A DNA stretch of 64,000 nt from Bremerella sp. P1 (lineage in GTDB: Bacteria; Planctomycetota; Planctomycetia; Pirellulales; Pirellulaceae): contig NZ_CP118164.1 of NCBI RefSeq assembly GCF_028748185.1, positions 2,790,001 through 2,854,000 of the forward strand, in the 5' to 3' direction. Every line of letters starts with the position of its first letter. Positions within the stretch are counted from its first letter, which is position 1. This document shows, piece by piece, positions 29,437 to 56,909 of the stretch. The notes under the pieces were generated by a model. It was given only the letters and a program-made list of their open reading frames with translations. It searched no databases and had not been told where the DNA came from. A program made the position numbers and the translations under genes.

Positions 29437-32400
29437 TTAGAGGAGTGATCGTTGACCAGAGGACGATTCGCCCTCCAGCATCTCCTTCAAAAATGCTCGC
29501 AGGTCGCCCTTTTGCAGGTCGGCATCGTGGCGGAAGTGGAGTCGGACGATCTCTTCACCACTGCGCGACTGATCGACGTCCGGTTCGTGACCTAATTCGG
29601 CGATTCTGCCCTGCGTGGTGGACGCTTTGGAGGTCTTCAATTCCAAGCGAACGTGTTCCGGCTTCTTCGTCGTCACCACCGCCCACGCGGTGCGCTTGCC
29701 TGGGATCATCATGTTGATCAGCATTTGGTTGTTCCACAGGATCTCGCCCTGCGGAGCGACCTCTTTGAGAAGCTCGATCACTTCTTCCAGCACCGACTGA
29801 TCCCACGCGACCTTCTTGCCCGGCGGGAAGCCCTTCCGTGAGAGATGCCACTTCTCGCCCAGTTTCTTCCACGGCATGTGGCTCTCGACATCCTGGCTGA
29901 TGGTCGCCTCATACTTCTGGAAGCCGATGATGGCGTCGTCGATGAACTTCCAGAACTCGGGCTTGTTGATCTCTTGCCAGCTGTGAGCTCGGATCTCGAC
30001 CTCCTGGAACGGACCGCGCAGGTTCTTGACCTTTACCCGTGGATCGTTGCTGTAGATCGGCAGTTCGTCCATCTGGTTCAGCGTCGGCAGATCGAGTTCC
30101 TGGGGCAGTTCGTACTTGTTGAACGTCCCCTTCATCACGCGGAACTTCAGCTTCACCAGCCAGCTTTCGCCGGTGATGCCATGGAAGAACCAACCGTCCG
30201 ACTTTTTCTTTGCGGCGATCTCGACAATCGTTCGCGAGTTCCAGTTCGGATCGCTGAATGAATCGGAAGCCTGAATCCGATCGACCACTTCGGCTAGGAT
30301 CTTGCCATCCCAGTTGCACGGCTGTCCGTCACGTCCGACGCGATCTTTGGTGTGCCAACGTCGCCCGTCGAGTTCCCACGGCATTTGAATCTGGGCACCC
30401 ACATCATCGATGTCGAGGTCCCCTTCGCGTTCCTCATCGGCGGCGTGCGGATCGTACAGCGGACGTTCCTGCAGCGGAGCCGCTTCCAGCACGGGCCCCA
30501 GCGCTTCGCCCGTGTGGCTACGCAGCCAGGTCATGCCTTTTTCGTCGGTCAGCGTCGACTCGTCCGTCTTCTGCTTCTTGGCCAGCTTGAGGAACGACTT
30601 CGAGTACTCGACGATATCCTCCGGCGTGCCGACCGTCACCACCTGGCCGCCAGATTGGCCTGCTTCAGGACCCATCTCGATGACCCAGTCGGCCTGCTTC
30701 AAGATGTCGAGATTGTGTTCGATCACGATCACCGTATTACCCAGGTCGACCAGTCGATGGAACACATCCAGCAGTTTCTTCAGGTCTTCAAAGTGCAGCC
30801 CGGTCGAAGGTTCGTCCAAGAGGTACAGCGTGCGACCCGTATCAGGGCGGGCCAGTTCCGAAGCCAGCTTCACACGTTGGGCTTCACCACCGGAAAGGGT
30901 CGGAGCCGACTGGCCAAGCGTGACGTAGTCGAGACCCACATCGCACAGCGTCTGAAGCGTACGGCGAATCTTGGGAATGTTCTCGAACAGCTGCACGGCC
31001 TGGCCGCACGACATCTCGAGCACTTCCGAGATTGTCTTGCCGTGGAACTTGACCGCCAGCGTTTCTTCGTTGTACCGCAGGCCCTCGCACGTTTCGCACG
31101 TGACCCACACATCCGGCAGGAAGTGCATCTCGATACACTTCTGCCCCATGCCTTGGCAGTCTTCGCAGCGACCTCCTTCGACATTGAAGCTGAAGCGACG
31201 CGCCGTGTAGCCGCGGACCTTCGCATCGGGCAATTGAGCGAACAGGTCACGAATCAGATCGAACACGCCGGTATAGGTGGCCGGATTCGAGCTGGGGCTG
31301 TTACCGATCGGCTGCTGGTCGACGCGGATAACCTTGTTGATGTTCTCCATGCCGCGCAACGCATCGTGGGCGCCCGGAATGGTCGAAGCGCGATGCAGAC
31401 GGCGAGCCAGCGTGTTGTACAGAATGTCTTGGACGAGCGTGCTCTTGCCGCTACCACTCGGACCACCGATGGCGACCAAGGCCCCCAGCGGAATCGAGAC
31501 GTTCACGTTCCGCAGGTTGCGATGGCTGGCCCCGACGATCTCGAGCCATTCGCCGGAAGGGCTACTGAAATCGGCGATCACGTCTTCGTCCGAGTTGTTG
31601 GCGATCGACATCATGCGGCGATTGCTCGGCGCGTAGATCGCTTGCTTACCGGAAACGTAAGGACCGGTAACCGAGCCTGCGGCCTTGGCGATTTGCTTGG
31701 GTGTTCCTTCGGCGACGATCGTTCCGCCGTGACGCCCTGCCTGGGGACCGAAGTCGATCAGGCGATCGCTCCCTTCAATCACTTCCTGATCGTGTTCGAC
31801 GACGATCAACGTATTGCCCAGGTCACGCAGTCGATGCAGCGCCTTGAGCAGTCGGCGATTGTCGCGTGGGTGCAGGCCGATCGTCGGTTCGTCGAGCACA
31901 TACAGCACGCCGCATAGTCCGCTGCCAAGTTGGCTGGCCAGGCGAATACGTTGGGCTTCGCCGGCCGACAGCGTCGGTGCCGTGCGACGCAGGGTCAGGT
32001 ACTCGAGACCCACGTCCAGCAGGAACTGCACGCGGTTGTCGATCTCTCGCAGCAGCTCGCCGGCGATCTTCTGTTCGCGCTTCTTCAGCTTGGCCGCGCG
32101 GATGAAATCCAACAGTTCGGCCAGCGGCATGCTGGTGATGTCACGCATCGACTTCTTGCGGAAGCGGACCGCCGAGGCGTCGTCTCGCAGTCGCGAACCA
32201 TCGCAGGTCGTGCACTCGACTTCCGCCACCAGCGATTCGAGCTGACCACGGAACGAAGGACTCAAACGCGAGGCATCTTCCAGGGCCGGATACAGCCCCT
32301 TGAACTGGAAGCGGAAATCGACCTTCTCCTTCTTCTTGTCGGTGAAGATATCGTAGACCGTGTCGCCGGTACCATGCAGGATGATCCGTCGCTGACGTGC

Positions 32401-35400
32401 CCCGAGCTGTTCAAACGGAACGTCGATCGGAATCTTGTTTTTCTCGCAGATCGCGTCCAGCATCTTCATTGCGATGGGCGACTTCAGATCAGGCCACAAC
32501 CGCAGGGCCCCTTCGGCCAGGCTTCGCTTCGGATCGCTTAGCAGTGCCGTCGGATCCGCACCTGTTTGCGTACCGAGCCCTTCACAGTCTGGGCACCAAC
32601 CGAGATAGCTGTTGAAGGAGAAGTTATGCGGCGAGAGCGGATCGAAGCTGCGATCGCACGACTCGCACGAGAGCTTCTGACTCAGACGCTTGGTTCGCCA
32701 GTGAGCTTCCGGCACGTCGTCTTCCGCGTAGGCGATCACCAGCACGCCGCCAGACTGGCTGAGGGCGATTTCCACGCTGTCGGCGATACGCGGTCGGGCA
32801 TCCTGGCGCACCACGATTCGGTCGACCACTACTTCCACGTCATGCTTGCGGCGGCGATCGATCTTCGGCATGCGATCGATCGTGTGCACCACGCCATCGA
32901 CGCGAATACGCTGATAGCCGGCGGCCTTCAGCTCTTCCCACAGATCGGAGTATTGCTGCCCAGTGTCCAGATGACGCGGAGCGAGCAGGAACAGCTTGGT
33001 CCCCTCCTCTTCCTGCAGGACCTTGTCGGTGATCTGCGTCGACGTTTGCGTTTTGATTGGAACGTCGCAGTCGGGGCAATGCGGCACGCCCAAACGGCTC
33101 ATCAGCACCCGCAGGTAATCGTAAATTTCGGTGACCGTACCGACTGTCGAACGAGGCGACTTGCCGAGGTTCTTTTGCTCGATGGCGATCGCTGGCGAAA
33201 GCCCTTCGATGTGATCGACCTTCGGCTTCTGCATCTGACCGACGAACTGCCGCGCGTAGGCGCTCAGGCTTTCGACGTAGCGTCGCTGTCCTTCGGCGTA
33301 AATCGTATCCATTGCCAGCGAGCTCTTACCGCTACCACTGGGGCCGCAGAAGACGGTCATCTTGTCGCGATCGATGCCGACGCTGACGTCCTTCAAATTG
33401 TGCATCTTGGCACCACGCACGTCGATCCGCTTGGCCAGGGCCTTGGCGGTCTGCTGCGATTCTTTCGCGGCGCGTTTGATCTCGGCAACGGCGCGGCTGG
33501 TTTCGCCCTTGAGTAGTGGCTGCAGGGCTTGGCCGGTGTACGAAGCTTCGACCGCGGCAACATCTTCGGGCGTGCCTTCGGCGACGACCGTACCACCGTT
33601 GACGCCCCCTTCGGGACCGAGATCGACAACCCAGTCAGCCGTCTTGATCACGTCCAGGTTGTGCTCGACCACCAGCACCGTATTGCCGGCACTGGCAAAG
33701 TCATGCAGCACCTTCAGCAGCATCTTCGTGTCGGCGAAGTGCAGCCCGGTGGTGGGCTCGTCCAGCAGATACAACGTCTTGCCGGTGCTTCGTTTGGAAA
33801 GCTCCTTGGCCAGCTTGATACGCTGGGCTTCCCCACCGGAAAGGGTCGGCGAAGGCTGACCGAGCTTGATGTAGTCAAGACCGACGTCGTGCAGTGTTTG
33901 CAGCTTCTGAGCGATCTTGGGAACGTTCTCGAACGTCTTCAAGGCTTCTTGCACGTCCATCTCTAAGATGTCGGCAATCGACTTTTCCTTGAACAAGATC
34001 TCGAGTGTTTCACGGTTGAATCGGTGTCCTTCACACACCGGGCAGGTCACCCAGATGTCGGCCAGGAAGTCCATCTCCAGCTTGTTGGCCCCGTTCCCTT
34101 CGCACGCGCTACAGCGGCCGCCGTCGACATTGAAGCTGAAGCGGCCCGGCTTGTAGCCGCGTTTGCGGGACTCAGGCAGTTGGGCGAACAGGTCGCGGAT
34201 TTCGTCGAACACCTTGATGTAGGTCGCCGGGTTACTACGTGGCGTGCGACCGATCGGGCTTTGATCGATGGCGATCATCTTGTCGAGATGCTCGATCCCT
34301 TCGATCCGTTCGTGCTCGCCGGGTTCGCCGAGGCCGCCGTTCAAGTCGCGACGGAGCGCTTCGACCAGGATGCCGTTGATCAGCGAGCTCTTGCCGCTAC
34401 CACTAGCACCCGTGATGCAGACGAATCCGCCCAGTGGAATCTCGGCGGTGATGTTCTTCAGGTTATTCTGCGCGGCACCGACGATGCGGAGCTTCTTTTC
34501 GCCCAAAGGGCGTCGCGTCTCGGGGATTTCGATCTTGTCTTTGCCAGATAGGAACCGCCCGGTGACGCTCTCGTCGACGGCTTCCAACTGCTTGGCCGAA
34601 CCTTGGGCGACGACGTACCCGCCACGGACACCAGCGCCGGGACCGAAGTCGATAATATGATCGGCGACACGCATCGTGTCTTCGTCGTGCTCGACCACCA
34701 GGACCGTATTGCCGAGGTCGCGCAGGTCGTTGAGCGTTGCCAGCAGGCGGTCGTTATCGCGCGGGTGCAGACCGATCGACGGTTCGTCGAGGATATACGT
34801 CACGCCCACCAGGCCGCAGCCGATCTGACCGGCCAGGCGAATACGCTGCGATTCACCACCACTAAGCGTTGGTGCGGTACGGTCGAGCGTCAGGTATTCG
34901 AGCCCCACGTTCTGCAGGAAGCCGAGTCGCCCGCGAACTTCTTTGACTGCTTCTTCGGCGATCTTTTGCGAAAGGTTGTCGAGCTCGAGCTGGCCGAAGA
35001 AATCGGCCGCTTCTTGAATCGACAGCTGGCAGATCTCGGGCAGCGTGCGCGAGCCATCTTTGCCGAACGCTTTGCTGGTCGTGGTGACCTTCACGCTGCG
35101 GGCCTGGGGGTTCAAGCGATCGCCATGGCACTGCGGACAGATGACCGTGGCCATGTACTTCTCGAGCTGTCGCTGCTGCGGCTTCGAGTTCGTGTTGCGA
35201 TACTTTTCCAGCAGGTCGGGGACGATACCGCCGTAAGTGCCGCCGTACATCTGCGGGCTGTTGCCGCCACGCCAGGTGAAGGTGATGTGTTCGTCGCCGG
35301 TGCCCCACAGCAGGTAGTCGTGGTGCTCCTTAGCCATGTCGCGCCAGGCCGTTTCCAGGATGGCCCCTTTGCCCAGGTCGTACTTCCGCTCCATCGTGTC

Positions 35401-36456
35401 GGCCATACCCTGGTAGATATGACGTTTCCAGCGACCGAGCTCTTTCCACTTGCCCAGCAGTTCGATCGCCCCTTGCTTGAACGAGAGGGTTACGTCCGGC
35501 ACGAGCAGTTCGGGATCGAATGTGTAGACCTTACCGAGGCCGTCGCACGTCGGGCACATCCCTTGTGGCGAGTTGAAGCTGAATAGCTGCGGCGTTGGCG
35601 GACTGTAAGATATCCCACAGTCGACGCAGGCATAGTCGACCGAAAACATCATGTCGCCGGCAACGGCCGTCTTGCTGCGTTTGCTTTTGGCGCGTTTCTT
35701 TTTCGGAGCCGCTTCCTGGCCTTCCGGCGTTTCGTCGTCGCGAGGGGCGATGATCAGGCTGCCTTCGCCCATCTTCAGGGCTAGCTCGACCGCTTCGGCC
35801 AGGCGTCCGCGGACCCCCTCTTTGATGCTCAAGCGATCGACGACCAGTTCGATGTTGTGCCGCATCTGCCGATCGAGCTGGAGCTCGTCGTTCAGCTGGA
35901 TGATCTCGCCATCGACGCGAGCCCGGACGAAGCCCTGCTTCAACAGGTCGATGAATAGATCTTTGAACTCCCCCTTCTGGCCGCGGACCAGCGGCGCCAG
36001 GACGGCGAACGAGGTGCCTTCTTCCTGGCCGAGAATCCGTTCGAGGATTTGTTCCCGCGTCTGGGCGGTCAGCTTCTTACCACATTCACTGCAAAACCCT
36101 TGGCCAACGCGCGAGAAAATCACACGCAGGTAGTCGTAGATTTCGGTGATCGTACCGACCGTACTACGCGGGTTATTGCTGGTGGTCTTCTGCGAAATCG
36201 AGATGCTGGGGGTCAAGCCGCCGATGAAGTCGACATCGGGCTTGGGCATCTGCCCCATGAATTGCCGCGCATAGCTAGACAGGCTCTCGACGTAGCGTCG
36301 CTGTCCTTCCGCATAAACGGTATCGAACGCCAGCGAGCTTTTCCCGCTGCCGCTCACGCCCGTCAAGCAAATCAATTTATTGCGAGGAAGCGTCAGCGTG
36401 ACCTCGCGCAGATTGTGTTCGCGGGCCCCTTTGACTTCAATATCGGAAACCGGCAT
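29437..36456 (-). CDS. uvrA: Fused double-length excinuclease ABC subunit A
   Basis: 2339 residues, about 2.5 times a usual UvrA (about 950). It is a head-to-tail fusion of two complete UvrA copies, which find bulky DNA damage for UvrB/UvrC excision. Copy 1 (about 1-1000) and copy 2 (about 1009-1965) each have two ABC ATPase modules. Walker A sites (GxSGSGKS) are near residues 33, 683, 1037 and 1663. Zinc fingers are kept in all four expected places, such as CVDCGISY...CPTCDG and CSACEGNG...CPVCEG in copy 1. ABC signatures are LSGGE in modules 1, 2 and 4, but LSAGE in module 3. A 370-residue tail follows, holding two related domains at about 2025-2185 and 2194-2328. Both ATG and frame are continuous; no frameshift is seen. 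Monocistronic. Confidence 0.96.
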   Translation of the reverse strand: MPVSDIEVKGAREHNLREVTLTLPRNKLICLTGVSGSGKSSLAFDTVYAEGQRRYVESLSSYARQFMGQMPKPDVDFIGGLTPSISISQKTTSNNPRSTVGTITEIYDYLRVIFSRVGQGFCSECGKKLTAQTREQILERILGQEEGTSFAVLAPLVRGQKGEFKDLFIDLLKQGFVRARVDGEIIQLNDELQLDRQMRHNIELVVDRLSIKEGVRGRLAEAVELALKMGEGSLIIAPRDDETPEGQEAAPKKKRAKSKRSKTAVAGDMMFSVDYACVDCGISYSPPTPQLFSFNSPQGMCPTCDGLGKVYTFDPELLVPDVTLSFKQGAIELLGKWKELGRWKRHIYQGMADTMERKYDLGKGAILETAWRDMAKEHHDYLLWGTGDEHITFTWRGGNSPQMYGGTYGGIVPDLLEKYRNTNSKPQQRQLEKYMATVICPQCHGDRLNPQARSVKVTTTSKAFGKDGSRTLPEICQLSIQEAADFFGQLELDNLSQKIAEEAVKEVRGRLGFLQNVGLEYLTLDRTAPTLSGGESQRIRLAGQIGCGLVGVTYILDEPSIGLHPRDNDRLLATLNDLRDLGNTVLVVEHDEDTMRVADHIIDFGPGAGVRGGYVVAQGSAKQLEAVDESVTGRFLSGKDKIEIPETRRPLGEKKLRIVGAAQNNLKNITAEIPLGGFVCITGASGSGKSSLINGILVEALRRDLNGGLGEPGEHERIEGIEHLDKMIAIDQSPIGRTPRSNPATYIKVFDEIRDLFAQLPESRKRGYKPGRFSFNVDGGRCSACEGNGANKLEMDFLADIWVTCPVCEGHRFNRETLEILFKEKSIADILEMDVQEALKTFENVPKIAQKLQTLHDVGLDYIKLGQPSPTLSGGEAQRIKLAKELSKRSTGKTLYLLDEPTTGLHFADTKMLLKVLHDFASAGNTVLVVEHNLDVIKTADWVVDLGPEGGVNGGTVVAEGTPEDVAAVEASYTGQALQPLLKGETSRAVAEIKRAAKESQQTAKALAKRIDVRGAKMHNLKDVSVGIDRDKMTVFCGPSGSGKSSLAMDTIYAEGQRRYVESLSAYARQFVGQMQKPKVDHIEGLSPAIAIEQKNLGKSPRSTVGTVTEIYDYLRVLMSRLGVPHCPDCDVPIKTQTSTQITDKVLQEEEGTKLFLLAPRHLDTGQQYSDLWEELKAAGYQRIRVDGVVHTIDRMPKIDRRRKHDVEVVVDRIVVRQDARPRIADSVEIALSQSGGVLVIAYAEDDVPEAHWRTKRLSQKLSCESCDRSFDPLSPHNFSFNSYLGWCPDCEGLGTQTGADPTALLSDPKRSLAEGALRLWPDLKSPIAMKMLDAICEKNKIPIDVPFEQLGARQRRIILHGTGDTVYDIFTDKKKEKVDFRFQFKGLYPALEDASRLSPSFRGQLESLVAEVECTTCDGSRLRDDASAVRFRKKSMRDITSMPLAELLDFIRAAKLKKREQKIAGELLREIDNRVQFLLDVGLEYLTLRRTAPTLSAGEAQRIRLASQLGSGLCGVLYVLDEPTIGLHPRDNRRLLKALHRLRDLGNTLIVVEHDQEVIEGSDRLIDFGPQAGRHGGTIVAEGTPKQIAKAAGSVTGPYVSGKQAIYAPSNRRMMSIANNSDEDVIADFSSPSGEWLEIVGASHRNLRNVNVSIPLGALVAIGGPSGSGKSTLVQDILYNTLARRLHRASTIPGAHDALRGMENINKVIRVDQQPIGNSPSSNPATYTGVFDLIRDLFAQLPDAKVRGYTARRFSFNVEGGRCEDCQGMGQKCIEMHFLPDVWVTCETCEGLRYNEETLAVKFHGKTISEVLEMSCGQAVQLFENIPKIRRTLQTLCDVGLDYVTLGQSAPTLSGGEAQRVKLASELARPDTGRTLYLLDEPSTGLHFEDLKKLLDVFHRLVDLGNTVIVIEHNLDILKQADWVIEMGPEAGQSGGQVVTVGTPEDIVEYSKSFLKLAKKQKTDESTLTDEKGMTWLRSHTGEALGPVLEAAPLQERPLYDPHAADEEREGDLDIDDVGAQIQMPWELDGRRWHTKDRVGRDGQPCNWDGKILAEVVDRIQASDSFSDPNWNSRTIVEIAAKKKSDGWFFHGITGESWLVKLKFRVMKGTFNKYELPQELDLPTLNQMDELPIYSNDPRVKVKNLRGPFQEVEIRAHSWQEINKPEFWKFIDDAIIGFQKYEATISQDVESHMPWKKLGEKWHLSRKGFPPGKKVAWDQSVLEEVIELLKEVAPQGEILWNNQMLINMMIPGKRTAWAVVTTKKPEHVRLELKTSKASTTQGRIAELGHEPDVDQSRSGEEIVRLHFRHDADLQKGDLRAFLKEMLEGESSSGQRSLL

Positions 36457-45694: not shown

Positions 45695-46693
45695 TTAGTA
45701 CTCACCCAGAGGCTGACCGTCGTCACGCAAACCAAGCTTCTGGTAGACGCCGATGGTCGACTTGTCGAGCGAGCCGTACGAACTGTACCAGGCAGCCGGG
45801 TTGCCGTCGTTCAAGAGCCCTTCACGCGAATCGATCGTTTCGCTGATGAAGTGCACGCTACCGTCGGCGAACAGGAAGTTGGCCCCGCCTGGGTGCAGGC
45901 TCGAGAACGCCAGGTAGAAACGTCCGACCAGCGGCTGATTCAACTTCTGACCAAACGTACGGCCGATGGCTTTCGGCGAAGACCACGACGATTCGGAGTT
46001 CACGTTACCGGTACCGACCCAGTAAGCCGCATGGTGAATGGAGTCGCGCTCGCCCACGGCAAACGTGTTGCTCGTTCCATCGGTGATGTCGGCCATGCGG
46101 ATCCCCTTTTGCGGGTCCATCATACCGTGCTTGTTAGGAATGCTCGCCGTAGGAGACGCGCCCCAGTTGGTCGTGTAGTGACCCAGTACGCCGGCGTAAT
46201 TGCTTTTAGCAGGCTTGGTCGAGTCAGGCCCGCCGGTGTGGCAGAAGTCGACCGAGGTGTTGATCACGTCGCCGGGATCGCTCGGGCAGATGTAGGCATC
46301 CAGCGGCGTCCGAATCAGGGCGACACCAGCGGCCGGCCAGCTGGACGAATTGTTGCCGGGCAGGAGATTGTCGAACTCTTGGCTGGTCACGCCCAGTTGA
46401 TCGTGCAAGGCCGATTGTTCGAGGAACGGTAAGATCCGAGCACCCCAGCCCCAGGCTTTTCTCCAGGAAGCGGCATTCGCCTGGTCGTTAAAACCGTAGC
46501 CGGCCGGGAATTGGCCATAGGTGTCGTGAAAGTTGTGCAGGCCCAGACCGATCTGCTTGAGATTGTTGTTGCATTGCATCCGCCGGGCAGCTTCACGTGC
46601 CTGCTGGACGGCAGGCAGTAACAGGGCAATCAGAACGCCAATGATGGCGATGACAACCAACAGCTCGACGAGCGTAAAGGCTCGCTTTTTCAT
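45695..46693 (-). CDS. DUF1559 protein, prepilin-like (module 1)
   Basis: 332 residues with the class III-type signal [20 protein letters not shown] at the start, then [20 protein letters not shown]. The body has DUF1559 motifs, including [18 protein letters not shown] near the C-terminus. It leads the module-1 transcript with its lipoprotein, from a TTGACA/TATCAC promoter. Paralogous to the DUF1559 genes at 10.6 and 47.6 kb. Confidence 0.93.
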
Positions 46694-46764
46694 AGACAGG
46701 TCCTCTGGAAGGATACGCGGGATATTTAGATAAGAACATAAACAGGCAGAACGCCTAGTATCCC

Positions 46765-46793
46765 GTGATATCTTCCGTCCCGGATTGTGTCAA
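46765..46793 (-). promoter_or_regulatory. Promoter of module 1 (DUF1559/lipoprotein)
   Basis: On the minus strand TTGACA (46793-46788) then 17 bp then TATCAC (46770-46765). The same hexamers at the same spacing occur at module 2, within a shared GATATCACGGGATA block. 72 bp ahead of the ATG. Confidence 0.7.
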
Positions 46794-47099
46794 TGCAATA
46801 AAACAGAGAAAAGGAAATAAATGCCCATAACGGATCTGAAAAGCCCGTTATGGCCCTAGATTACCTGTTGTGAATCGGAAAGACGAAGTTTGCAGGGCAA
46901 AAAGATGTGGGGAGACGCACCCCTACGAGTAGAGGTTATTCGGCCGCTGAATCTAGCGGTCTATGAGAATGGTTGCGTTTTGCCAGGCTCCTGGGCTGCT
47001 GTGCGGTAGAAATGAAAAAGGCCGGAAACCCATGATGGGTATCCGGCCTTGAGTGATCCGCGGTTCGACAGGAGCGTCGATCCGACTTGCTAGGAAGCA
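46794..47099. other. Intergenic region between modules
   Basis: 306 bp with the terminator of module 2 at its right end. The rest shows no ORF or structure beyond AT-rich stretches. Confidence 0.5.
47015..47050 (-). terminator. Intrinsic terminator of module 2
   Basis: Stem AAGGCCGGA/TCCGGCCTT at 47018-47026 and 47042-47050 with an inner ACCCAT/ATGGGT pair; TTTTT on the minus strand follows at 47019-47015. It lies 49 bp after the lipoprotein stop. Confidence 0.88.
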
Positions 47100-47516
47100 T
47101 TACTTGCCGTTCTTCGAGATCTCGAGGTCGATGGTGTTGTGCCCACCACTGATGGTCACCTGACGGATCTCTTCGTAGTACTCGTTAGGAAAGGGTCGTT
47201 TCGGCATCTGCCCCGGTGCCGGCGGTGCGACGTTGGGCTGTACCAGCTTCACGACGCACGTTCCTAAACGAACCCCTTTGGTCGAAAGGGAGTATTCGGC
47301 TTCATATTGGCCCGACTCGTTCGTGACAGCCGTGCTGCCGCGAACGCCTTTGGTGACCGGGTCAAATTCAAGTTGCAGCCCTGCCGGAGCCGGCTGGCCG
47401 TCGATATAGACCGTGCCAGATACCGTTCCAATGCTGACTTCGCTGCTGCTGCCGCACCCGGTGGTGATCAGCAGCGTGAGCAAAAGTCCAAGGGGCGTCC
47501 ATCTTGCTGCGCACAT
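47100..47516 (-). CDS. Lipoprotein with transthyretin-like domain (module 2)
   Basis: 138 residues from MCAARWTPLG. The lipobox LLITTGC puts lipidation at Cys21. The domain opens VSGTVYIDGQPAPAGLQLEF and has NESGQYEAEYSLSTKGVRLG, then a proline-rich linker and a YYEEIRQVTISGGHNTIDLE end, all parallel to the module-1 lipoprotein. A much longer open frame to 47816 is an artefact overlapping the upstream DUF1559 gene. It starts 64 bp after that gene's stop. Confidence 0.82.
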   Translation of the reverse strand: MCAARWTPLGLLLTLLITTGCGSSSEVSIGTVSGTVYIDGQPAPAGLQLEFDPVTKGVRGSTAVTNESGQYEAEYSLSTKGVRLGTCVVKLVQPNVAPPAPGQMPKRPFPNEYYEEIRQVTISGGHNTIDLEISKNGK

Positions 47517-47580
47517 GGTTGATAAACTCTCATCGGTTGCGCCGCCGTGGCGACGACTAGAAATGTGGCTGACGTCAGAA

Positions 47581-48504
47581 CTATGGCAGCGAGACCGTTT
47601 GGCCGTCGTCGCGAACGCCCAGCAGTTGGTAGACGCCCATGCCGCTGGCGTTGGCGTAAACCTGGTCGCGGACGCCGTTGCCGCCGAACCAACCGTTTGG
47701 TACGCCGTTCTTATCGAATTCGATGTGCTCGGAAATGAACTGGACCGAACCGTCGCAGAAGGCAAAGTAAGCTCCTTCGGTGTGCTGACTGGTGAAGCCC
47801 CAGTGTGCGGTGGCATTCATCGGGAAGGAAACGCACTTCGAGAGAGTGTTCTGTCGTTCGAGATAGCTGTTGCCAGGTGTACCGGCCCAGAAAGCCCAGC
47901 CACGTGGACCAGGAACCCAACCACCAGCTCGGGCCGAAGCTTCACCGATGGCGAATGTGTTGGAAAGACCGTCGGTGATCGCCGAGAACTCCAGGCCTTC
48001 CTTGTTGATGGCACCCGTGTTGGCCGCGGCATCCGAGTCCCAACCGGCTTGACCGTATCCACGCGAAGCCGCGTAGCTGATCACGCCGTATTCGACGCCG
48101 TCGTGTTCGTAGGTTTCCGGAGCGGTGGTCGATGGGCAACGCAGACCCGAGATAACCGTACCTAGCGCGTCGGTTGCGGCCGTGCCGGCGCTTCCGTCAA
48201 CCGCTTGCGGGAAGGTATTCGAGTTGACACCAACCGTTTCGCTCAGGTTGTCCTGCTCCATGAACGGCAGAATCTGAGCAGCCCAACCCCAGAAAGTGTT
48301 ATCCCGGCGGTACGAAGGCATTTCAAGGAACGTGTCGTGGTAGTTGTGAATCGCCAAGATGCTCTGCTTCAGGTTGTTGCGGCACTGCACCTTGCGGGCG
48401 GCTTCGCGGGCCTGTTGAACAGCCGGCAATAGAAGGGCGATCAAGACGCCGATGATGGCGATGACCACGAGTAGTTCTACAAGGGTAAAGGCTTGCTTCT
48501 TCAT
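47581..48504 (-). CDS. DUF1559 protein, prepilin-like (module 2)
   Basis: 307 residues from [12 protein letters not shown], preceded by an open but unlikely 16-codon extension. N-terminal signal and [20 protein letters not shown] helix as in the paralogues. C-terminal region AYFAFCDGSVQFISEHIEFD matches the family. First gene of module 2. Closest relative in the window is the module-1 DUF1559 protein. Confidence 0.93.
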   Translation of the reverse strand: MKKQAFTLVELLVVIAIIGVLIALLLPAVQQAREAARKVQCRNNLKQSILAIHNYHDTFLEMPSYRRDNTFWGWAAQILPFMEQDNLSETVGVNSNTFPQAVDGSAGTAATDALGTVISGLRCPSTTAPETYEHDGVEYGVISYAASRGYGQAGWDSDAAANTGAINKEGLEFSAITDGLSNTFAIGEASARAGGWVPGPRGWAFWAGTPGNSYLERQNTLSKCVSFPMNATAHWGFTSQHTEGAYFAFCDGSVQFISEHIEFDKNGVPNGWFGGNGVRDQVYANASGMGVYQLLGVRDDGQTVSLP

Positions 48505-48576
48505 TAGATGATCTAATCCTGGAAAAATAACGCGAGATATCAAATGGGGCAAAGCATAAAAGTGAGGTACTATCCC

Positions 48577-49928: not shown

Positions 49929-52055
49929 CTAATCTTCGTCGTCGGCCTCGTCATCGTCGAACAGTTCGCCTTGGCCATCTTTCGGCTTTGTAGTTGCGGG
50001 GGCGTCCGCTTCGGCCGGCCGGTTCAGCATGTCGGCCAGCATCTCGTCGTCATCTTTGTCGACGATGAGCACGCCGCCACCGTAGTCGGCTTGGGTCGGA
50101 TCGACTGCCTTGCCGCTTTCGTCGAGAACCATGTCGGCCTCGGCCGTCTTCTTCTTGGCGACTTCCAGCAGCTTTTCGTAGATGTCTTCTTTGTCGGTTC
50201 CGTTGATGTCGCTGACGGCTTGGGCCACTTCGCCCAGGTACCGACGGAAGATGCTACGACGGTCGGCCTGTTGCTTCACCTTCATCCGGCGACGAAGGAA
50301 CATCCCCAGCTTACGTCCGACGGTCTGCAGCGCCAGTCGCATTTCCTTCTGGATTTCGTCGTAGCTGGCGACGGCTTCCTTGGCCTGGTTGGTAAACGGA
50401 ACCCAGACGCTGGCAATGTGCACCATGATGGTGACCGGACCGCTGGGCAAGTTGCCGCGCGACTGCGACAGGCCATACGAACGCCAGTTGGTTTGCGCGA
50501 TGGTCTTGGTGATCGCACAGTCGCCGTGCTGGAATTGCAGCGGCACGCGGTTGGCGTACCGGTAGACCTGCATCGACTGCCCTTCGTTGACGTTGACGTT
50601 CTGCATCGCTTCGAAGAGGTGGTCGATCTCTTTCGGCTTCAGCTTGTTGGGGCTCTTGCGCGTGCCGACCTTCGACTGCTTGATGATCTTGTCGGCCGCA
50701 TCGGGACCGAGGCCATTGAACGTGAGGATCAGGAACTGGCGGACCGTTCGCGCGTCGGTTTCGTACAGCAGTTCTTTGAGCAGATCCTTGGTGATCTTCT
50801 GCGTTTCGACGTTGCCGCCGTAAGCCAACGCGACTTCAATCTGGAAGGGATTACCACGGTAAACGGCTGGGGGACGCGTGGCCGCGGCGTAGAACTCGGC
50901 CGGCACGACACTATGCAGCCCTTTAAGCAGTTGCTCTTCACCGATCGGCACGATGCAGTCAGTCGTGGGATTCGAGATCTTGGTGTCTTGAATCGCCGCG
51001 TACAGGTGCTCGGCGTGATCGCGATCGATACGCTTGACCCGCATGCGCGTGCTGAGCTTGGCCTTGTCGCAGATCTGCTTGGCAATGCCCGAACTGACGC
51101 GGGAAAACGAGGTCGTCAGAAAACCGGACAGGCTCGACTCGGTCGATTCCTTGCACATCGAAACGAGTCGGCCGAGCTCGACCCCGTAAGGATGCGGTTT
51201 GATTTCGGTCGCTTCAGGCGGCAAGATGTCGGTCGATCGGCGGTAGGTCTTTTGGTGGCCGCTGGGGTCGATGTAGTGCAGCGTGACGTGCGGGTTGGCG
51301 ATCGCCGTTTGTTCGAGGTATTCGTCGACGCTGCCTTTGCCGCGCTGGTACTTGGCTTCCAGGTCGAGCGTGACGCGGGTGCCGGAAACCAACGGCTTGG
51401 GCTTGGCATCCGGCTTTTCGGGATCGTGATGGGTGACCCATTCGATGCCGTGGTCGGCGATGTACTGCTCTCCCTTTTCGCCGGGCGGGATGTCTTCGCC
51501 GTCCCCCTTGCCGTTGAGGATCTCGGGCTTGTTGACCTTGGTATCGATTCGCAGTTCGTAGTAGTGGGCAGGCTTCCTGGCACCTGTCTTGCTGACGATC
51601 TTGATCGGTTTGCCAGTGGTCAAAATGGCATACATACCGGCGGCACTAATACCGATACCCTGCTGGCCGCGGCTCATCCGCAGACGATGGAATTTCGAGC
51701 CATACAGCAGCTTGCCGAAGATCAGCGGGATTTGCTTTTTCAGAATGCCGGGCCCGTTGTCTTGGATGGCCGCTTTGTAGCGGCTTTCGCCTGTCTGTTC
51801 GACGTGCACCCAGATCTCGGGCAAGATGCCGGCTTCTTCACAGGCGTCCAGCGAGTTGTCGACGGCTTCCTTGATGGTCGTCAGCAGGGCCTTGCGCGGG
51901 TTGTCGAAACCCAGCATATGACGATTCTTGGCAAAGAACTCGCTCACCGAGATCTCGCGCTGCTTCTTGGCCATCGTTTCGGCCGTAGCGCGGCGGGGAG
52001 CAGACTTCTTACGCTTTGCGGTTCCGTTCGCAGTGGTGGTGGCGCCTTCCGACAA
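49929..52055 (-). CDS. top6B: DNA topoisomerase VI subunit B
   Basis: GHKL ATPase subunit of the type IIB topoisomerase VI, typical of archaea and plants and found in a few bacteria. ATP site motifs: EAVDNSLDA (N box), QDNGPGI (G1), GQQGIGIS (G2). Transducer motifs such as LSGFLTTSFSRVSSGIAKQI and TKTIAQTNWRSYGLSQSRGN follow. At 708 residues it is longer than archaeal versions (about 530), with an acidic C-terminal tail. TTG start with AGGAG eight bases upstream. The A subunit (Spo11-like) is not adjacent on either side. So a functional topo VI would need a distant top6A gene. Confidence 0.94.
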   Translation of the reverse strand: MSEGATTTANGTAKRKKSAPRRATAETMAKKQREISVSEFFAKNRHMLGFDNPRKALLTTIKEAVDNSLDACEEAGILPEIWVHVEQTGESRYKAAIQDNGPGILKKQIPLIFGKLLYGSKFHRLRMSRGQQGIGISAAGMYAILTTGKPIKIVSKTGARKPAHYYELRIDTKVNKPEILNGKGDGEDIPPGEKGEQYIADHGIEWVTHHDPEKPDAKPKPLVSGTRVTLDLEAKYQRGKGSVDEYLEQTAIANPHVTLHYIDPSGHQKTYRRSTDILPPEATEIKPHPYGVELGRLVSMCKESTESSLSGFLTTSFSRVSSGIAKQICDKAKLSTRMRVKRIDRDHAEHLYAAIQDTKISNPTTDCIVPIGEEQLLKGLHSVVPAEFYAAATRPPAVYRGNPFQIEVALAYGGNVETQKITKDLLKELLYETDARTVRQFLILTFNGLGPDAADKIIKQSKVGTRKSPNKLKPKEIDHLFEAMQNVNVNEGQSMQVYRYANRVPLQFQHGDCAITKTIAQTNWRSYGLSQSRGNLPSGPVTIMVHIASVWVPFTNQAKEAVASYDEIQKEMRLALQTVGRKLGMFLRRRMKVKQQADRRSIFRRYLGEVAQAVSDINGTDKEDIYEKLLEVAKKKTAEADMVLDESGKAVDPTQADYGGGVLIVDKDDDEMLADMLNRPAEADAPATTKPKDGQGELFDDDEADDED

Positions 52056-52533
52056 CGTGGAAACTCCTGAAGCAACTGATGGGGTTTCGATCTAACCTGA
52101 TCCGCTCGCCCCTCAGAAGAGAGGGTTCGGGGTAAGGGGCGAACCGGGTATCTGTTTTCCAACCCTCACCCTATCCCTCTCGCATGGAAAGAGCGAGGGG
52201 ACGCGATGCGAATTGAATCGCCGATTGTAGTAAAGTTTGTCGATTACGGGGATAGCGGCAGGATCTGGAGATTGGGGATGACTGTCACACTCGGAAGAAT
52301 AGGGGTTTTTGGCATGATGGCTTCATAAAGTCTCAGACTACCCATCCGAATAGCCGATTTAATCAACGACGGAAGGTCTGGACTTATCTGACCCGCGCAG
52401 ATTGCCGAAGTACCCAGAGGCGGCGGTTTGGACCGGTTTCCCGACAAATTCACACAACGCGAAGCTAAGAAACCCATCCACGGCCAAAAGCGTGGTTGCC
52501 CAATTGCCGCATTTGGCAGGAGCTATCAATCGG
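52056..52533. other. Intergenic region with an inverted hairpin-repeat pair
   Basis: 478 bp between divergent genes. A CTCTCCC-family pair lies at about 52106-52142 (CGCTCGCCCCTCAGAAGAGA then GGGTTCGGGGTAAGGGGCG) and about 52161-52203 (CCAACCCTCACCCTATCCC then GCGAGGGGACGCG), facing each other. No ORF called; the frames that cross it have no ribosome site. Confidence 0.7.
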
Positions 52534-52899
52534 ATGAAACGCATTGCAACAACTTGTTTGTTCGCCCTGGTCCTGACTGCAGGCTGGATGGCGGTTGGCT
52601 CGACGGCTCAGGCTAACGAGTATGCCAGCCCACCGGTTTACCCCGACATCATGAACCAGTACTACGTCGCCGATCCGTACTACGGATATCCAGCTGCGAT
52701 GTATACCGCTCCGATCACGACGCCTCCTTACGTTCCGCAAACGTACATCACGTATCCAGCACTGGATCCGCACGAGTTTCTGTATAAGCACCACCGCAAC
52801 TACTACCACTACTACAACGGTGGTCAGGGTTTCAACCGTACCAAGGTTCACTGGTACGGTGGTCGAACTTGGCTGAATCCTTACAACCCGTTCTTTTAA
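52534..52899 (+). CDS. Secreted Tyr/Pro-rich small protein
   Basis: 121 residues from MKRIATTCLF. Signal peptide about 1-27 (FALVLTAGWMAVGSTAQA). The mature part is rich in Tyr and Pro (YYVADPYYGYPAAMYTAPIT), with a C-terminal YKHHRNYYHYYNGGQGFNRT block. AGGAG eleven bases upstream. Such proteins are probable cell-surface or matrix components. Paralogous in style to the next gene, 49 bp away, but not alignable over full length. Confidence 0.7.
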   Translation: MKRIATTCLFALVLTAGWMAVGSTAQANEYASPPVYPDIMNQYYVADPYYGYPAAMYTAPITTPPYVPQTYITYPALDPHEFLYKHHRNYYHYYNGGQGFNRTKVHWYGGRTWLNPYNPFF

Positions 52900-52948
52900 T
52901 CAGAAACTGCTCGAGCCGGACCACGTCCCTCGCTTCACGTAGGAAATA

Positions 52949-53593
52949 ATGACGATGACCCAGACACGACTGATTCTCGCTCTCCTCGTCGGCCTGACCA
53001 TTGGCGGCAGCGTGCAAACGGCTGAAGCTGGTTGGCTGTGGGGACGTGGCTACAGCAACAATGCAAACGCTCAGCATGCCTCGAACTTGCCTTGGCACGG
53101 CGGCTATGCCTACGCGAACTACGAAACGCCCGTTGCCATGGTCGTTCCGCCCAACGCGAACATGCAGACGAACTACTCGTGGGGCGTGCCTTCGAGCCGC
53201 ATGACGCCTGTCTATCACCAGTTCGGTCGCGCTTACGCTGGCGGCATCACCGGTCACCCAAGTACCTTGGGTACGACCCCTTACTGGCCCAACGACACGC
53301 AGCAGTTCGGCGTTTACAACGTTCGTGGTCCTTGGACTTGGAACGCTGCTGACCTGGGTTACGGCTGGCACATGGGTTTCCACCATCGCCCACACTGGAA
53401 CAACAAGATCGGTAGCTGCCCTAACGGCAACTGCTATGGCAACGGCTACTACGGCGGCGGTGCGTACGACGTCGAAGGTGGCAATGTCATCACCGAAGAA
53501 GGCTACGTGCCTGGCAGCTACAGCGAACAGCCGATCACTCCGGCTGAAGCTCCGACGCCTGCTCCCGTGCCAGCCGCTCCGCCAGAAGCTTAG
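52949..53593 (+). CDS. Secreted Gly/Tyr/Asn-rich protein
   Basis: 214 residues. Signal peptide about 1-27 (LILALLVGLTIGGSVQTAEA). The mature part is low-complexity, with GWLWGRGYSNNANAQHASNL, HRPHWNNKIGSCPNGNCYGN and a Pro-rich acidic end (PAEAPTPAPVPAAPPEA). AGGA ribosome site before the ATG. Follows the Tyr-rich gene on the same strand, so both may be exported matrix or coat proteins. A strong terminator follows. Confidence 0.72.
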   Translation: MTMTQTRLILALLVGLTIGGSVQTAEAGWLWGRGYSNNANAQHASNLPWHGGYAYANYETPVAMVVPPNANMQTNYSWGVPSSRMTPVYHQFGRAYAGGITGHPSTLGTTPYWPNDTQQFGVYNVRGPWTWNAADLGYGWHMGFHHRPHWNNKIGSCPNGNCYGNGYYGGGAYDVEGGNVITEEGYVPGSYSEQPITPAEAPTPAPVPAAPPEA

Positions 53594-54792: not shown

Positions 54793-56505
54793 TCACTTCA
54801 TAAGTGCGTCTAACTCGCCGATGAGACGATCGAGCATCGCATCTTGGGAACCTTGTCCATCTTTCATGGACTCAAGTTGTTCCCGCAGCATATCGCGGGC
54901 ATCTAGGGGCTGACGGCTTCCAGTACTGGTCGCAGTGCCCATGTTGCTGCTGGCGGTAGAACCTGGGGGCAATAGCTTACGATAGATGGCAGACGCTTTG
55001 CGGGATTGCCGCGCCAAATCTCGCAGGTTCTTGGCAACAAAAACCTCTTCGGTCCCGTCGGGATGTTCGATTGTGAGCGAAATGGTGTCGGGTTTTTCAA
55101 CAATCGTGATGTTGTCGCCATTGAGAGTCGCCTCCGTCGTACGCGTCCACAACTCATTGCCATTTGCATTGAGCGAACTCATCGATTGCTTCATTCTCGA
55201 CGAGTCTTCAAGTTCCATTTCGGGCCGAGTCTTGGGTTTTTGGGCGTCTTGCGGAGAATCTGTGTTGATCGATATTGAAGTTCTACCGCTCGACTGCGAC
55301 TTTGCACGAGTCATAGCGCCGCCGAAGCCAAAGCCCCCTGCGTTCCCGTCCGAGTTTCTTCCCCTGCCTGATCCGGTACCCCTGCCTGCTCCGGCACCCA
55401 GGGCGTCGGCAGATCCTGACCCTCGAGAAGTACCGCTCGCAGTTACCGAAATGTTCAGCCCGTCGGCATCCTTGTTCACCGTGAGTTCCTTGCGCTCATC
55501 CTTTTCCGCTTGTTCGGCAAGCGCAAATGGCAGGAGACCTAAAACGCCCATTGCCGTTACGGCCCAAGCGATCAACTTCGAGGGTTTGTAGTGTGCCTGA
55601 TACATGGAGGAGATCCTTTGCTTGAGACTAGAAGTCGAGCCTATCATTGCCACGGCACTAATCGGAGTTGCCGTAGCGTGTTCCGCAAGTTGTACGAGAA
55701 GACGCGCGAATTCGGCGCGATTTCCGCCGGTGTTCGCAATCGCGATACTATCGCAGGCCATTTCCTGAGACAGGAGATAGCGCCGCATAGCAATCCAAAC
55801 TAAAGGATGGAAGAAAAGTACTGCCCGAGACCAAACGAAAAAGCGATTCCATGCTAAATCGCCGCGGGCCAAGTGCGCCAGCTCGTGGGCCAAAGATAAT
55901 CGCAGCTCTGACATCGAACACGATTCAAGCCACTGCTTCGGGAGAAGTATGATCGATTGTTTTTTTCTACTGAGCAAACAGGGACTATTCGTTCCTGGTA
56001 CCAATCGAACCTCTGGAACAACCTTTAGGCCTAACTTGCGACTCATGGCTCGTACATTCTGAACGAGCAGGCTAGTTGCCAGGGTGGAAGTCGACTTCTG
56101 TAGTTTCTTTCGGACCTGCCGGCCGCTCTCCCAAATGGATATCGCGCACGCGATGAAGCCTATGAGCCAAATCGCAAACAGGAGAAGCGCTAACGGCGGT
56201 ATGGATGATTGCCAAGAATCCGTAGCAATGGCTGAAAGTGGGACATCGACAGAATTGCTTGTTGCCGTACTTACGGTCGGCTCGGCAGATGCTGGGAGTA
56301 GTGGAAGTGGAATGGAGAGAGGTATTATTGCAATGGCGATTTTGAGAAACGCTAATCGCCAAAGCCAATTTCGCCAGCTTGGTGGCATGGACTTCCATTG
56401 GTAATCGATCAGCAAGGCAATGAGGATGACAATCGTGCCTTGCCAGGTTACTCGCCAAATAATATCGAACCAGGCCGAAAGGAATTGAGCCAGGAAATCA
56501 ATCAT
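54793..56505 (-). CDS. M56-family (BlaR1-type) membrane metallopeptidase
   Basis: 570 residues. Four or more helices at the N-terminal part (two near 1-70, then about 100-125 and 310-330). Zn site HELAHLARGD at about residue 206 and the downstream QEMACDSIAI Glu. This is the antirepressor-type peptidase that in BlaR1/MecR1 relays a signal to cleave or release the BlaI repressor. The C-terminal domain is unlike the beta-lactam sensor: a Gly/Arg-rich low-complexity linker, then a short beta region (TTEATLNGDNITIVEKPDTI). So the ligand is unknown. Coupled to blaI by a 4-base overlap. Confidence 0.88.
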   Translation of the reverse strand: MIDFLAQFLSAWFDIIWRVTWQGTIVILIALLIDYQWKSMPPSWRNWLWRLAFLKIAIAIIPLSIPLPLLPASAEPTVSTATSNSVDVPLSAIATDSWQSSIPPLALLLFAIWLIGFIACAISIWESGRQVRKKLQKSTSTLATSLLVQNVRAMSRKLGLKVVPEVRLVPGTNSPCLLSRKKQSIILLPKQWLESCSMSELRLSLAHELAHLARGDLAWNRFFVWSRAVLFFHPLVWIAMRRYLLSQEMACDSIAIANTGGNRAEFARLLVQLAEHATATPISAVAMIGSTSSLKQRISSMYQAHYKPSKLIAWAVTAMGVLGLLPFALAEQAEKDERKELTVNKDADGLNISVTASGTSRGSGSADALGAGAGRGTGSGRGRNSDGNAGGFGFGGAMTRAKSQSSGRTSISINTDSPQDAQKPKTRPEMELEDSSRMKQSMSSLNANGNELWTRTTEATLNGDNITIVEKPDTISLTIEHPDGTEEVFVAKNLRDLARQSRKASAIYRKLLPPGSTASSNMGTATSTGSRQPLDARDMLREQLESMKDGQGSQDAMLDRLIGELDALMK

Positions 56506-56909
56506 TTCTTCCTCCCCTTATCCTTTTTGGCCTGCTTCGCCTCGAGATCTTCGACCAACGATTTCAATTGAGCCAACTCTTCTGGATCAACTTCCTTCTG
56601 GTCCTGCAAATAGGCGACAACGGGAGAAACCGATCCGCCGAGCATCTTTTGAACAAAATCACCCACAAGTCGAGGTAATAGCTCAGATACCGAGACACGT
56701 GGAGAGTAGTGGTTGACGCCTTTGATAGAACGTCGCGTCACGCATCCCTTGGCCCGCAACCGTTCGAGGGTTGTCAGGATGGTTGTCCGTGCCTGACCTG
56801 TTTTGTCGGCCAGATGTTCCACTAACGTTCGAACGGAAACAGGCTGTAGTTCTTCTACCGCTTGAAGCAGTTCGAGTTCAACTTTGCCGAGAGGTTTGCG
56901 CTGCGACAT
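56502..56909 (-). CDS. BlaI/MecI/CopY-family repressor
   Basis: 135-residue winged-helix repressor: KVELELLQAVEELQPVSVRT, then LADKTGQARTTILTTLERLR as the recognition helix, then KGCVTRRSIKGVNHYSPRVS. The C-terminal helices form the dimer and include the likely cleavage region. ATG preceded by AAGG eight bases upstream. The gene leads the operon, with the operators and promoter in front. Likely controls its own transcription and that of the M56 gene. Confidence 0.92.
   Translation of the reverse strand: MSQRKPLGKVELELLQAVEELQPVSVRTLVEHLADKTGQARTTILTTLERLRAKGCVTRRSIKGVNHYSPRVSVSELLPRLVGDFVQKMLGGSVSPVVAYLQDQKEVDPEELAQLKSLVEDLEAKQAKKDKGRKK

What the first reader, a model, noticed from the sequence alone, without database searches (positions are those of the whole stretch)
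49929..52055. Bacterial topoisomerase VI subunit B without a neighbouring A subunit
All GHKL motifs are intact and it is long (708 aa), but neither flank carries a Spo11/Top6A gene. The B subunit may pair with a distant A gene, or act alone.
Basis: partly seen in the sequence, partly recalled or inferred. Interest (0 to 1): 0.65.

Follow-up and report, generated by a model that had tools for sequence, protein, structure and literature searches.

The report
Topoisomerase VI B with doubled H2TH
This bacterial DNA-untangling enzyme subunit is not an orphan, because its partner gene lies 0.7 million bases away on the same chromosome after an old gene pair was split; more unusual, the subunit carries a second copy of its own DNA-gripping domain, whose grip residues are worn away.

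Summary
The gene is real and intact, but on the minus strand (TTG start at 52055; 708 aa). It is a DNA topoisomerase VI subunit B. It is not A-less: the genome holds one Top6A (387 aa) 0.71 Mb away. Of 246 phylum genomes 112 have both subunits, 2 only B, 1 only A; 96 of 114 have them within 3 kb. In this genus the pair was broken between the two genes: B keeps the old upstream neighbours, A the old downstream thioesterase. "Acts alone" is not supported.

Residues about 415-491 are a second Topo VI-B H2TH domain inside the transducer: profile E 6e-16, Foldseek's first 14 hits all Topo VI-B, four helices exactly 129 residues after the canonical ones. It has constant length in 50 of 50 relatives aligned and no match above 55 bits outside the order. 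It lost the basic DNA-contact residues. Allen and Maxwell (2024) saw a helical bundle there in Pirellula staleyi; the parts I read do not call it H2TH. Likely role: structural or regulatory element of the transducer (inferred).

The parts
49929..52055 (-). top6B gene, DNA topoisomerase VI subunit B, 708 aa, TTG start at 52055
   Evidence: same TTG start with ribosome-binding-like site in the window and 4 of 4 genus members looked at
51189..51986 (-). GHKL ATPase domain (residues about 24-289)
   Evidence: alignment to M. mazei and S. shibatae Top6B; invariant motif residues in 46 sequences
50973..51188 (-). canonical H2TH domain (residues about 290-361); keeps equivalents of M. mazei K268 (R/K in 49 of 50) and K308 (K/R in 50 of 50), mostly not R263 (R in 4 of 50)
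   Evidence: helices 294-303, 309-316, 322-331, 345-357 in the model
50814..50972 (-). link and first part of the transducer domain, up to the insertion point (residues 362-414)
   Evidence: Topo-VIb_trans positions 1-58
50583..50813 (-). second H2TH domain inserted in the transducer (residues about 415-491), near-neutral charge, no equivalents of the three DNA-contact residues
50136..50582 (-). rest of the transducer domain with W-R-S-Y (WKxY-like) motif, lysine K559 and long stalk helix 566-618 (residues 492-640)
52402..53593 (+). two divergent genes (165 and 214 aa, no Pfam family) whose relatives also sit upstream of the linked B-A pair in the two sister-genus genomes examined: the ancestral upstream flank

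Best explanation
The gene encodes the ATPase (B) subunit of a normal A2B2 DNA topoisomerase VI; the DNA-cutting A subunit is made from a gene 0.71 Mb away. The ancestral order B, A, thioesterase was broken between B and A in the ancestor of the genus, probably by an inversion, and the subunits now meet in trans. Because the genome has gyrase but no second GyrA/ParC-type gene was found, topo VI is probably its second type II topoisomerase and chromosome decatenase (inferred). The B subunit is a variant: a second H2TH domain, derived from a Topo VI-B H2TH, is built into a loop of the transducer. The first H2TH keeps two of its three DNA-arm contacts; the second has lost them and is uncharged overall. 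I therefore infer that it works mainly as a structural or regulatory element in or by the T-segment cavity (contacts with the partner protomer, the transducer or Top6A) rather than as a second grip on the bent G-segment. Shown here: partner gene, split, co-occurrence, identity and distribution of the second H2TH. Inferred: heterotetramer, decatenation, role of the second H2TH.
For: Single Top6A in the genome. Co-occurrence and joint absence. Split: own genus 8 of 8 not adjacent (3 on one contig, 5 on different contigs), sister genus 4 of 4 adjacent; each gene keeps its own ancestral flank, seen in G000 and G343 against sister genomes G121 and G320; A and B on opposite strands in the three genus members with both on one contig. 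One PF00521 match, with GyrA-box motifs (QRRGGKG, and a second QKRGGKG) in its locus. Second H2TH: hhalign 70 ungapped columns, probability 98.6, E 6e-16; PDB profile hits Topo VI-B 1.5e-7, uS13 1.6e-3, Fpg 0.024; insert HMM 49.7 bits to the best Topo VI-B H2TH and 30.3 to the own one, Fpg 8.5, S13 about 0, NFACT none; Foldseek top hit 9o0g_B, rmsd 1.0, TM 0.83, first 14 hits all Topo VI-B; helix offset 129; in all 50 sequences none of 1000 shuffles reaches the self-match score. Contact residues lost, mean charge +0.2 against +4.9 (contacts from PMC5922973 and PMC13040014, passages).
Against: The role of the second H2TH is not shown. Its place in the cavity comes from the paper's AlphaFold model of P. 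staleyi, not from a model of mine: my full-length model is weak (pLDDT 67) and I did not model the tetramer. The neutral domain could still bind DNA through other residues (invariant R466 and a G-x-G-type hairpin). Intragenic duplication, rather than a copy from another Top6B, has weak support (62/98.8), and the insert HMM scores some other families' H2TH above the own one. 9 of 196 order genomes carry only one subunit, 7 of them only B (drafts of 210-710 contigs, 76-95% complete). In the phylum sample G182 and G228, both of family f75, have B only; G228 is in 30 contigs and 95% complete, so a real loss of A there is not excluded.
Confidence: 0.85

Rival explanations
1. Top6B acts alone, or with a partner other than Top6A.
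For: No A gene in the window; 2 of 114 phylum genomes and 7 of 178 order genomes with B show no A match; G228 (30 contigs, 95% complete) is the strongest case and was not followed up.
Against: Top6A is present in this genome; co-occurrence, joint absence and matching A/B lineages; the other B-only genomes are drafts of 210-710 contigs; in the known enzyme the cleavage tyrosine and TOPRIM are on A (recalled).
Confidence: 0.03
2. The second H2TH is a working extra DNA grip that binds the T-segment in the cavity or a longer G-segment arm.
For: H2TH folds are generally nucleic-acid binders (PMC5922973, passages); the hairpin G448 and R466 are invariant in 50 of 50; the paper places the bundle of P. 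staleyi in the central cavity.
Against: Positions equivalent to the three DNA contacts are I/T/M/V/L/A, G (50 of 50) and N (44 of 50); net charge near zero.
Confidence: 0.3
3. The insert came from another H2TH family (NFACT/RqcH, uS13 or Fpg), as the Pfam hit NFACT_N suggests.
For: NFACT_N E 4e-10 and Ribosomal_S13 5e-5 on the whole protein; NFACT_N matches 23 of 23 inserts.
Against: NFACT_N also matches 17 of 17 canonical H2TH domains and about the same profile positions on both copies (170-239 and 160-238); direct comparison prefers Topo VI-B in sequence and fold; no NFACT match at E 0.001 in the genome outside Top6B.
Confidence: 0.07

Closest known systems
DNA topoisomerase VI (type IIB), e.g. 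Methanosarcina mazei Top6A/Top6B (2q2e, 9o0g)
   Same: GHKL, canonical H2TH, transducer with WKxY-type motif, lysine and stalk; a Top6A with TOPRIM in the same genome
   Different: A and B genes unlinked; a second H2TH inside the transducer; shorter KGRR-equivalent loop; no sequence match to the M. mazei C-terminal region after residue 626
Topo VI of Pirellulales (Pirellula staleyi, Lacipirellula parvula, Thermogutta terrifontis) in Allen & Maxwell 2024, PMC11302465
   Same: Topo VI A and B with gyrase and no topo IV; an alpha-helical bundle at the transducer of P. staleyi (sections 12 and 14 read whole, otherwise passages)
   Different: The parts read describe the bundle as unique and do not identify it as a second H2TH; I saw no treatment of gene linkage in those parts (the word 'operon' occurs 0 times in the text).
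H2TH domains of Fpg/Nei glycosylases, ribosomal uS13 and NFACT/RqcH
   Same: Same fold type
   Different: Weaker in sequence and fold score than the Topo VI-B H2TH

Membership tests
DNA topoisomerase VI subunit B | Full-length match above curated cut-off of the family model | tested here: met
   NF003218 686.4 bits (cut-off 274), TIGR01052 502.6 (cut-off 380.7)
DNA topoisomerase VI subunit B | GHKL ATPase with N-box E/N, G1 and G2 motifs and transducer lysine | tested here: met
   alignment; invariant E63, N67, D99, G101, G103, G130, G133, G135, K559 in 46 sequences; K559 aligns with M. mazei K435; motif names recalled
DNA topoisomerase VI subunit B | H2TH domain between GHKL and transducer | tested here: met
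DNA topoisomerase VI subunit B | Only one H2TH domain, continuous transducer (as in the solved members; not required for membership) | tested here: not met
   second H2TH at residues about 415-491
DNA topoisomerase VI (holoenzyme) | Top6A with winged-helix tyrosine and TOPRIM acidic residues in the same genome | tested here: met
   (TP6A_N E 7.7e-16), residues 50-385 aligned to S. shibatae Top6A, L-Y-Y and D-x-D stretches shared (that these are the catalytic ones is recalled)
DNA topoisomerase VI (holoenzyme) | ATP-dependent relaxation/decatenation, A2B2 assembly | not testable with these tools
   needs purified proteins
Topo VIB-like (meiotic, SPO11 partner) | Complete absence of an H2TH domain (PMC11302465 section 12) | tested here: not met
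   two H2TH domains present
[quoted passage not shown]
   the gene lies in the 6.96-Mb contig and its orthologue is in most sampled genomes of the order, but Topo VIII sequences were not compared
NFACT / Fpg / uS13 (for the insert) | Best sequence or fold match of the insert | tested here: not met
   Topo VI-B outscores each

The most novel reading that the evidence does not exclude
An order-wide lineage of bacteria that lacks topoisomerase IV has re-engineered an archaeal-type topoisomerase VI by duplicating its own H2TH domain into the T-segment side of the transducer and stripping the copy of its DNA contacts, making a protein gate that changes how the enzyme captures or retains the T-segment (for example favouring decatenation over relaxation).
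Probability: 0.25. Interest if true: 0.7.

Novelty: new variant of a known kind. Interest (0 to 1): 0.45.

Why it matters
Why some bacteria keep topo VI beside gyrase is open (PMC11302465: further work needed to establish its role in bacteria; passage). A natural variant with a duplicated, DNA-contact-stripped H2TH in the transducer gives a ready test of what the H2TH and the transducer cavity do, since other families carry only a short loop or a low-complexity insert at the same place. It also shows that non-adjacent A and B genes do not mean an orphan subunit, and that Pfam's NFACT_N match to these proteins is misleading.

Tried and rejected
B acting alone: rejected on the partner gene and co-occurrence. 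Exchange of A partners: the phylum has two Top6A types (about 50-82% against 30-37% identity to the own A; L006 at 42% between), so I tested them on the Top6B tree; they form clades (2 changes, minimum 2; 53 of 64 candidate rows, the rest lacking a Top6A match of 330 aa or more in the same locus, which leaves out the unlinked genomes other than the window's), so no exchange is seen. Insert from NFACT, S13 or Fpg: rejected. Inserts at the same loop in other families (segments of 42-91 aa against 38-39 in the shortest forms) are not H2TH of this type: no match above 54.6 bits in the 380 sampled genomes outside the order (at most 14 first-look candidates scored per genome, and the 12 order members are counted from the table's sorting). 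The tree of H2TH copies (69 columns, 92 rows) cannot settle intragenic duplication against copying from another Top6B: 62/98.8. The full-length AlphaFold model is too weak (pLDDT 67) to place the insert in the holoenzyme. For the 44 order genomes with A and B on different contigs I did not check the distance to contig ends, so some may be assembly breaks. Sampling of the 50 aligned relatives: the window, 46 loci of the order (mostly the best-scoring matches, plus 16 chosen across families) and 3 named MAG contigs (L004, L005, L008) whose order was not checked; the weaker matches were not fetched. Alignment A1 holds 23 of the 34 inserts printed, A2 17 of the 20 canonical domains printed. Literature: searches showed no title, abstract or passage naming a second H2TH in Top6B; this covers open-licence PMC only.

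Full report
Observation. The ORF at 49929-52055 is on the minus strand, 708 aa, TTG start. The same TTG and a purine-rich site upstream occur in the window and in the four genus members looked at. It is Topo VI subunit B above curated cut-offs, aligns to M. mazei Top6B in three blocks (residues 24-180, 224-419 and 493-626), and its model's ten best structural matches are all Topo VI-B (Z 24.5-28.6; the next rows, GyrB and MLH1, about 16).

The partner. The genome (6,955,728 bases, one contig) has one TP6A_N match at E 0.001, at C1:3548693, with a 387-aa ORF. It matches NF003333 (557 bits, cut-off 465) and S. shibatae Top6A (E 1.7e-76). B and A are 0.71 Mb apart. In 246 genomes drawn from the phylum, 112 have both, 2 only B, 1 only A (that hit is below the family cut-off) and 131 neither; the two matches lie within 3 kb in 96 of the 114 with B. 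In 196 genomes of the order the numbers are 171, 7, 2 and 16 (three misses inferred by exclusion). Within the own family 13 of 35 genomes lack both. The two Top6A types of the phylum fall as clades on the Top6B tree. So B and A travel together whether or not they are neighbours. Against this stand the few B-only genomes, of which G182 and G228 belong to one family (f75); a third f75 genome, G206, has A 3.3 kb from B, and a fourth, G138, has both on different contigs.

The split. Of 127 order genomes where both places were listed, 77 have A within 6 kb of B, 6 have them 186-714 kb apart on one contig and 44 on different contigs, some of which may be assembly breaks. Own genus: 0 of 8 adjacent (three on one contig, 650-709 kb apart; five on different contigs). 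Sister genus: 4 of 4 adjacent. One other family (f93): 0 of 25 adjacent, 24 of these on different contigs. In the two sister-genus genomes examined (G121, G320) the order is two divergent genes, then B, A and a thioesterase-like gene. In the two own-genus genomes examined (G000, G343) relatives of the two divergent genes are still upstream of B and the 4HBT thioesterase is still downstream of A. The break therefore fell between B and A. A and B are on opposite strands in the three same-contig cases of the genus, as an inversion would leave them. Other separated cases (G127 outside the order, 481 kb; G167, 714 kb, same strand) look like separate events (inference).

The second H2TH. The transducer match is split by extra sequence. 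Of 66 Top6B proteins compared, 7 carry a 111-residue segment at this place (the window, three order genomes and the MAG contigs L004, L005 and L008); the other 59 have 38-91 residues, either a plain hairpin or charged low-complexity loops. In 50 distinct relatives the insert has constant length without indels and is conserved about as well as the canonical H2TH (mean share of the commonest residue 0.66 against 0.71; GHKL 0.83); L15, D23, R25, F30, F35, G37 and R55 are among the invariant positions of the 23-sequence alignment. Profile comparison with the canonical H2TH of the same kind of proteins: 70 ungapped columns, probability 98.6, E 6e-16. Best PDB sequence matches are Topo VI-B H2TH domains (1.5e-7), ahead of uS13 (1.6e-3) and Fpg (0.024). 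An HMM of the insert scores 49.7 bits on the best Topo VI-B H2TH (another family's) and 30.3 on the own one, against 8.5 for the own Fpg, about 0 for S13 and none for NFACT. The insert alone folds with pLDDT 83, and Foldseek's first 14 PDB matches are all Topo VI-B (best 9o0g_B, rmsd 1.0 over 72 columns). In the full model the four helices of the two copies all start 129 residues apart, and so are L297/L426, F312/F441, F317/F446 and R337/R466, each the same in 50 of 50. In the window protein the self-match at this offset scores 59, the next best place 8; in all 50 sequences no shuffle of 1000 reached the observed score. Of 392 phylum genomes, 11 have insert-type matches (124-140 bits), all among the 12 order members sampled; the twelfth, G295, lacks B and A in the order searches. 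Nothing else exceeds 54.6 bits.

What it does. In M. mazei the H2TH residues R263, K268 and K308 touch the bent DNA arms (PMC13040014, abstract, passages and section 10; predicted and mutated in PMC5922973, passages). Here the canonical copy keeps K268 (R/K 49 of 50) and K308 (K/R 50 of 50) and mostly lacks R263 (T 42, R 4 of 50). The second copy has I/T/M/V/L/A, G (50 of 50) and N (44 of 50, K 2 of 50) at those places, and a mean net charge of +0.2 against +4.9. I read it as a duplicate that kept the fold and lost the arm grip. Allen and Maxwell place the bundle of P. staleyi in the central cavity (PMC11302465 section 12), which would put it where the T-segment is held; transducer state is linked to cleavage competence in M. 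mazei. A structural or gating role is the most likely, at about 0.55 to 0.6; a second DNA contact through other residues at about 0.3.

Setting. The genome has one PF00521 (GyrA/ParC-type) match, with GyrA-box motifs, consistent with the published list in which topo VI-bearing Pirellulales have gyrase and no topo IV. Topo VI may then be the decatenase (that paper's suggestion; not tested here).

Verdict. The A-less appearance is ordinary gene separation. The doubled H2TH is a new variant of a known enzyme; the bundle itself was seen before in one species (and in a dinoflagellate sequence thought to be acquired), its nature and spread were not stated in what I could read.

Noticed in passing
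window 29437-36456 (-): 2339-aa ORF with two UvrA_inter and two UvrA_DNA-bind stretches: two UvrA units fused in one chain.
   Followed up: no
window 54793-56909 (-): BlaI-type repressor (Penicillinase_R) next to an M56/BlaR1-type membrane peptidase.
   Followed up: no
window 51387-51512 (-), Top6B residues about 182-223: About 40 residues in the GHKL domain that do not align to M. mazei (between the aligned blocks), partly conserved in the order.
   Followed up: no
window 51333-51347 (-), Top6B residues about 237-241: The KGRR loop of M. mazei (a DNA-crossing sensor there, PMC5922973 passages) reads QRGKG here, QRGRG in the order consensus, and is one residue shorter.
   Followed up: no
L006 and L009: MAG contigs labelled Nanoarchaeia and Fibrobacterota carry Top6B (54 and 53% identity) next to a Top6A (42 and 56%); their Top6B fall among the planctomycete type I rows: transfer or binning error.
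   Followed up: partly
other families of the phylum, e.g. L095-L098, L126: The same transducer loop carries long charged low-complexity inserts (68-91 aa segments) in several families: a permissive site.
   Followed up: partly
phylum genomes G182 and G228 (family f75): Top6B without a Top6A match, G228 in only 30 contigs: possible real loss of A.
   Followed up: no
window 45695-48552 (-): Two DUF1559 (SBP_bac_10) pseudopilin-like genes with N-methylation motifs near each other.
   Followed up: no
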